In this document: piece after piece, positions 34,929 through 35,295 of the stretch
How the letters are laid out: each line of letters opens with the position of its first letter
How positions within the stretch are numbered: position 1 is the stretch's first letter
Assembly: GCA_009926935.1 (NCBI GenBank)
Contig: RFNZ01000002.1
Span: 1 to 64,000, forward strand
From: Pseudomonadota bacterium
GTDB taxonomy: Bacteria > Pseudomonadota > Alphaproteobacteria > Micavibrionales > UBA1664
Length of the DNA: 64,000 bases
Direction: 5' to 3'
Program-made: the position numbers and the translations under genes
Notes under the pieces: generated by a model
Databases searched by the model: none
The model's input: the letters and a program-made list of their open reading frames with translations, nothing else
What the model was told of the DNA's origin: nothing

Positions 34929-34956
34929 CGTCGTCCCTGCGAAGGCAGGGACCCAC
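34929..34956. repeat. REP-like type A left arm flanking the GIY-YIG gene
   Basis: cgtcgtccctgcgaaggcagggacccac, starting at the base after the trpE stop. Confidence 0.9.
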
Positions 34957-34964
34957 AGTAAAGA

Positions 34965-35294
34965 ATGAAAGAATTTTGGGTTTACATCATGGCTTCAGAC
35001 TTTAACGGAACACTTTATGTTGGTGTAACGTCCAATATCGTGCAGCGCGTTTTCCAACACAAAACCGATGCGATAGATGGCTTTACAAAAGAACATGGCA
35101 TTAAAAAACTTATCTTTCTTGAAAAACACGAAAGCGCAGAAAGTGCGATTACACGTGAAAAACGTATAAAAGCGTGGAAACGGGAATGGAAAATGAATTT
35201 GGTTGAGAAGGAAAATCCACAGTGGATTGACCTTGCGCATAACTGGTATGAACAGGGCAAACTGCAAAGTGGATCCCTGCCTACGCAGGGATGA
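34965..35294 (+). CDS. Small GIY-YIG nuclease-domain protein
   Basis: FWVYIMASDFNGTLYVGVTSNIVQRVFQHK...LIFLEKHESAESAITREKRIKAWKREWKMNLVEKENPQWIDL; C-terminus GSLPTQG* encoded by the repeat arm. Confidence 0.93.
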   Translation: MKEFWVYIMASDFNGTLYVGVTSNIVQRVFQHKTDAIDGFTKEHGIKKLIFLEKHESAESAITREKRIKAWKREWKMNLVEKENPQWIDLAHNWYEQGKLQSGSLPTQG

Positions 35295-35295
35295 C
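35269..35295. repeat. REP-like type A right arm flanking the GIY-YIG gene
   Basis: gtggatccctgcctacgcagggatgac. Confidence 0.9.

What the first reader, a model, noticed from the sequence alone, without database searches (positions are those of the whole stretch)
34929..35295. GIY-YIG gene packaged between REP-like inverted repeats and inserted exactly between trpE and trpG
Left arm cgtcgtccctgcgaaggcagggacccac starts at the base after the trpE stop. Right arm gtggatccctgcctacgcagggatgac ends 5 nt before the trpG start at 35300. Between them is one small GIY-YIG gene, visibly more A/T-rich than its neighbours. The right arm encodes its last residues (GSLPTQG) and stop codon, and its ATGA could couple to an alternative trpG start at 35291. 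The unit looks like a mobile cassette carrying a stand-alone nuclease-domain protein, seated so as not to break the operon. The nuclease may act in cassette mobility, by analogy with REP/RAYT systems; that role is inference.
Basis: partly seen in the sequence, partly recalled or inferred. Interest (0 to 1): 0.82.

Follow-up and report, generated by a model that had tools for sequence, protein, structure and literature searches.

The report
Repeat-flanked nuclease cassette in trp operon
A tiny gene for a DNA-cutting enzyme, framed by two copies of a hairpin repeat that is scattered through the genome, has slipped in between two tryptophan genes; it belongs to a widespread family of such cassettes, in which the enzyme probably recognises, and may help spread, the repeat that frames it.

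Summary
A 109-aa GIY-YIG gene lies between two outward-facing CGTC-tagged hairpins exactly between trpE and trpG; the right hairpin encodes its last residues and stop. A congener has the empty junction. The arrangement is general: 32 of 88 related genes have the outward repeat pair against 0 of 398 control genes. Genomes with the gene carry more repeats (18 of 22 mixed genera, 0 lower). The repeat's tail tracks the protein clade, not the genome (20/20 vs 2/50). Stem pairs covary fully. Two other cassettes, in suf and gcv operons, have empty sites in a close relative. The genome's 88-bp repeat dimers share the cassette's inner end. Most likely this is a REPtron-like unit whose nuclease recognises the repeat as single-stranded hairpin. 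That it drives dispersal is inference: near-identical copies are rare. A gonococcal homolog (52% identical) amid dRS3 repeats ties it to what I recall as the Ssn nuclease family (paper not held). So: a new member of a known kind, bearing on an open question, what moves CGTC REPs.

The parts
34929..34956 (+). Left CGTC-tagged REP hairpin, head outward, loop GAAG, CCAC tail toward the gene
34956..34967 (+). Inner left end CAGTAAAGAATG (likely Shine-Dalgarno plus start codon), similar to the spacers of the genome's 88-bp repeat dimers
34965..35294 (+). Stand-alone GIY-YIG nuclease-domain protein, 109 aa; Y7, Y18, R28, H32, E65, N84 invariant in the alignment
35269..35295 (-). Right CGTC-tagged REP hairpin, head outward, loop GTAG; encodes the C-terminal SGSLPTQG and stop of the nuclease and provides AGGG and ATGA next to trpG
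33414..34928 (+). trpE, anthranilate synthase component I (upstream neighbour)
35300..35863 (+). trpG, anthranilate synthase component II (downstream neighbour; alternative in-frame start at 35291)
11220..11307 (.). 88-bp head-outward dimer of the same repeat, 36-bp spacer, no gene inside: candidate short derivative
152..248 (.). 97-bp head-outward dimer of the same repeat, left copy degenerate

Best explanation
The feature is a small mobile or formerly mobile cassette: one GIY-YIG nuclease gene between two outward-facing CGTC-tagged REP hairpins. It inserted at the tight trpE|trpG junction after this species split from its congeners. The nuclease most likely recognises its own class of repeat in single-stranded, hairpin form (invariant YGTC head, CC/GG and GC/GC stem pairs, clade-specific tail) and cuts at or near the head. 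The short head-outward dimers spread over the genome would be non-autonomous forms of the same element, as REPINs are to RAYT genes. Shown: anatomy, junction occupancy, family-wide association, co-occurrence, clade-specific repeat tails, stem covariation, empty sites for two other cassettes. Inferred: recognition and cleavage of the hairpin, and its use in dispersal. At trp the right arm gives the nuclease its stop and supplies an AGGG and an ATGA beside trpG, which could keep trpG translated.
For: Empty trpE|trpG overlap in G001 (GTGCAGTCATGATCATCC), no GIY-YIG there in G002, in the more distant relatives read, or in 80 named trpE loci, 50 of which reach trpG. Outward repeat pair at 32/88 related GIY-YIG genes versus 0/398 control genes and 5/10000 random intervals; many of the rest have GTCAT...ATC hairpins of other stem sequence. 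Repeats: median 9 in 81 genomes with the gene, 0 in 65 without; higher in 18 of 22 mixed genera, lower in none. In the genus: 44, 1 and 0 copies. Tail YYG in 20/20 loci of one protein clade against 2/50 elsewhere; nine genomes hold both kinds and each cassette keeps its own. Stem positions 5/20 and 8/17 show all four Watson-Crick pairs. G055 cassettes in sufC|sufD and gcvH|gcvP are absent from G047 with about 90% identical flanks. Dimer spacers resemble the cassette's left inner end (0 of 2000 shuffles as good at 13 nt). Closest proteins P0002 and P0003 also end GSLPSQG and GSLPAQG. Gonococcal homolog, 52% identical, amid 238 dRS3-type repeats.
Against: Recent copies of whole cassettes are rare: of all pairs above 80% nucleotide identity only two lie in different surroundings, at 80-81%. 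Ten gene-less genomes have 5 or more repeats, although the repeats could outlive the gene. No clear target-site duplication.
Confidence: 0.72

Rival explanations
1. The nuclease recognises the repeats but does not move them: it is a host or selfish single-strand nuclease that processes repeat-bearing ssDNA (for example DNA taken up in transformation), and its own flanking repeats are cis sites; repeats spread by other means.
For: Rarity of recent cassette copies. From memory, the Neisseria Ssn nuclease was reported to modulate natural transformation through the NTS repeat; that paper is not held.
Against: Exact empty sites for cassettes and the within-genus rise in repeats only where the gene is point to spread linked with the gene.
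Confidence: 0.4
2. A RAYT (Y1/HUH transposase) elsewhere in the genome moves the CGTC repeats and the cassette in trans.
For: G000 has one Y1_Tnp gene, C3:6288-6620.
Against: G001 has one too but a single repeat of this kind; eleven of the fourteen genomes searched lack a Y1_Tnp match, among them repeat-rich G010, G036, G041, G042, G046 and G055. The G000 gene has no CGTC repeat within about 6 kb. PMC3733652 found none of the RAYT genes of CGTC species flanked by CGTC repeats.
Confidence: 0.05
3. Passive hitchhiking: REP hairpins are preferred landing sites for many small genes and GIY-YIG is only one of them.
For: REPs cluster in intergenic space, and the trpE|trpG junction also took an unrelated insert in G002.
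Against: 0 of 398 control genes have the outward pair; repeat tail follows the protein clade; termini of the protein are encoded by the arms in several relatives.
Confidence: 0.05

Closest known systems
Ssn, site-specific single-strand nucleases of the GIY-YIG superfamily (Neisseria; recalled from a 2025 paper, not held here)
   Same: Small stand-alone GIY-YIG protein; gonococcal homolog 52% identical over residues 6-90; genome-wide CGTCATTCCC...GGGAATC repeats around it.
   Different: Here the gene sits inside a compact two-repeat cassette in the trp operon and the arm codes its C-terminus; no ssDNA cleavage was tested; any role in transformation is unknown.
CGTC-tagged REPs (PMC3733652)
   Same: CGTC or TGTC head left unpaired, palindromic stem, mostly head-to-head dimers, common in alphaproteobacteria.
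   Different: That paper found no dedicated enzyme; here the repeats frame and co-occur with a nuclease gene.
RAYT/REPtron with REPINs
   Same: Low-copy gene flanked by inverted REPs, plus many short repeat dimers without the gene.
   Different: GIY-YIG domain instead of a Y1/HUH transposase; CGTC instead of GTAG tag.
GIY-YIG homing endonucleases (I-TevI type)
   Same: Same catalytic domain and tyrosine, arginine, glutamate, asparagine set.
   Different: No intron or intein, no NUMOD DNA-binding domain, flanked by REPs rather than lying in a cut target gene.

Membership tests
GIY-YIG superfamily | GIY-YIG domain with catalytic residues | tested here: met
   PF01541 E=5.5e-14; Y7, Y18, R28, H32, E65, N84 invariant in 25 sequences
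Ssn-like nucleases | Homology to the Neisseria protein | tested here: met
   52% identity over residues 6-90, E=1e-23; that the gonococcal gene is the published Ssn is from memory
Ssn-like nucleases | Cognate palindromic repeat dispersed in the genome and around the gene | tested here: met
Ssn-like nucleases | Site-specific cleavage of ssDNA bearing the repeat | not testable with these tools
   needs purified protein
CGTC-tagged REP | Unpaired (C/T)GTC head next to a GC-rich hairpin | tested here: met
   GTC in 45 of 47 copies; preceded by C in 28 and T in 18; stem pairs covary
CGTC-tagged REP | Head-outward (HH) dimers predominate | tested here: met
   nearly all G000 pairs are + then -
RAYT/REPtron | Y1/HUH tyrosine transposase | tested here: not met
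   the protein is GIY-YIG
Insertion sequence | Recent near-identical copies at different sites | tested here: not met
Insertion sequence | Target-site duplication | tested here: inconclusive
   2-bp overlap at the G055/G047 suf site, may be chance
GIY-YIG homing endonuclease | Location in an intron, intein or cut target gene, with a target-binding domain | tested here: not met
   intercistronic, 109 aa, only the catalytic domain

The most novel reading that the evidence does not exclude
CGTC-tagged REPs are the non-autonomous forms of a distinct class of mobile element whose only enzyme is a GIY-YIG nuclease that processes hairpin ssDNA at the repeat ends: a GIY-YIG counterpart of REP/RAYT, repeatedly seated at operon junctions.
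Probability: 0.4. Interest if true: 0.82.

Novelty: new member of a known kind. Interest (0 to 1): 0.6.

Why it matters
CGTC-tagged REPs, among them the dRS3 repeats of Neisseria and the RPE-4/RPE-6 repeats of Rickettsia, were left in 2013 without a known mobilising enzyme (PMC3733652). This locus and its relatives supply a candidate, with a repeat code that changes with the protein clade, so enzyme specificity can be predicted from flanks and tested. It also shows a nuclease cassette entering core operons without destroying them.

Tried and rejected
RAYT in trans. Phage origin: no match in 50,697 phage records. IS-like bursts: no near-identical copies at different sites. Solved relatives: only weak UPF0213 and UvrC matches. 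The protein tree does not resolve the nearest kin of the window protein. Papers on Ssn or linking GIY-YIG to REPs were not found in the library. A first protein alignment failed because of a frame error in one reference. No structure prediction was run, since domain identity was not in doubt.

Full report
Observation. The sequence is as described. trpE ends at 34928; the left arm begins at 34929; a 109-codon GIY-YIG ORF runs 34965-35294; the right arm ends at 35295; trpG starts at 35300 or, in frame, at 35291. The arms are 24/27 complementary and each is also a self-contained hairpin with an 8-bp stem and a 4-nt loop. The last codons and stop of the nuclease lie in the right arm. Neither hairpin is followed by a run of T, so they do not look like intrinsic terminators (sequence).

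The repeat. The genome (G000, 2.04 Mb, order of Micavibrio by its named relatives) holds 46 matches to CGTCATNCCNGCNNNNGCNGGNATCCA with up to 3 mismatches and none to the reversed pattern. That pattern did not ask for pairing, yet the free stem positions pair: among 28 distinct copies positions 5/20 show CG, TA, AT and GC, and positions 8/17 likewise all four pairs. The head GTC, CC/GG, GC/GC and CCA are nearly invariant, though part of that is set by the search pattern. Copies lie mostly as head-outward dimers of set length: 88 bp in about ten places, 72-73 bp in four. The 36-bp spacers, read from one end, resemble CGGTAAAGAATGACGAATAT; the cassette inside its left arm reads CAGTAAAGAATGAAAGAATT. 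The likeness exceeds 2000 of 2000 shuffles at 13 nt and has p of about 0.001-0.002 at 16-20 nt. So dimers and cassette look like short and long forms of one element. Whether the gene was lost from, or gained by, the dimers cannot be told.

The site. In the two congeners available the junction differs: G001 has trpE and trpG overlapping by ATGA with nothing between, and G002 has an unrelated 0.6-kb insert with a 175-codon minus-strand frame. More distant relatives have a minus-strand polysaccharide-deacetylase-like gene there (my reading of the translations). None of 80 named trpE loci (50 reach trpG) and no other of about 110 GIY-YIG loci combines the two. With three congeners the empty overlap of G001 is the likeliest ancestral state of the genus, but a loss there cannot be fully excluded.

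The family. The protein has relatives in 108 of 146 genomes of the order, up to nine per genome. Of 88 loci with full flanks, 32 have the pattern in the outward arrangement on both sides, against 0 of 398 control genes and 5 of 10000 random intervals. Many others carry hairpins of the same plan with other stems, for example GTCATTACCCGCTTTATGCGGGTAATC. Genomes with the gene have a median of 9 repeats, those without 0; in genera that hold both, the average is higher with the gene in 18, lower in none, tied in 4. Within this genus the counts are 44 (gene with this repeat type), 1 (gene of another clade, with a GTCATTGCGAG repeat) and 0 (no gene).

Matching of repeat and protein. One well-supported protein clade of 25 has repeat tails CCG, CTG or TTG in all 20 loci where a repeat was read, against 2 of 50 elsewhere, mostly CCA. 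Nine genomes hold cassettes of both kinds, and each cassette keeps the tail of its clade (in one of the nine, G100, the outside cassette has one CCG and one CTA tail). So repeat type follows the protein, not the host, as expected if the protein reads the repeat. Shared descent of gene and arms as one unit would also give this pattern; that too means the cassette travels whole.

Mobility. G055 and G047 are close relatives. G055 has a cassette between sufC and sufD and another between gcvH and gcvP; in G047 both are absent, with flanks 89-94% identical, and the suf junction is simply closed. Azospirillum lipoferum plasmid AZO_p3 has one between sufB and sufC. Against a high rate of movement, near-identical cassettes in different surroundings were not found; the best such pairs are 80-81% identical.

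Known relatives. The N. gonorrhoeae homolog is 52% identical over residues 6-90 and lies among dRS3-type repeats, of which that chromosome has 238 copies. [quoted passage not shown] I recall a 2025 report of a single-strand-specific GIY-YIG nuclease family, Ssn, recognising such a repeat in N. meningitidis; it is not held, so this is memory, not evidence. A RAYT is an unlikely mover: eleven of fourteen genomes searched, several of them rich in repeats, lack a Y1_Tnp match.

Mechanism and confidence. Recognition of the flanking repeat by the nuclease: likely (about 0.75). Action on the single-stranded hairpin: likely, from stem covariation and the recalled Ssn work. Use of that activity to spread cassette and dimers: open (about 0.4-0.45). 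Effect on trp: the right arm provides AGGG nine bases before ATG 35300 and an ATGA like the ancestral overlap, so trpG translation may be kept; untested.

Noticed in passing
L035:1915-2505 (G002, equals JAGWXJ010000046.1): The same trpE-trpG junction carries an unrelated insert with a 175-codon minus-strand frame with no Pfam match, so the junction takes inserts repeatedly.
   Followed up: partly
L037, L038, L041, L042, L043 between trpE and trpG: A minus-strand divergent-polysaccharide-deacetylase-like gene sits between trpE and trpG in other families of the order.
   Followed up: no
G000:C18:99890-101095 (L237, L238): Repeat pairs with longer spacers that hold a second palindromic repeat of the type aaccacgaagcacactaagaacacgaag.
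   Followed up: no
G000:C3:6288-6620 (L265): A RAYT-like Y1_Tnp gene, present also in G001, not near CGTC repeats.
   Followed up: partly
P0040 and P0081: Relatives whose N-terminus reads MSFLR(K/R)QES, apparently encoded by the left repeat arm.
   Followed up: no
NZ_CP119142.1, NZ_AP026896.1 in the plasmid collection: Records of 2.2 and 4.9 Mb labelled as plasmids look like chromosomes.
   Followed up: no
L223, Planktothrix agardhii p1: A relative lies between a type IIL restriction enzyme gene and the DISARM gene drmA.
   Followed up: no
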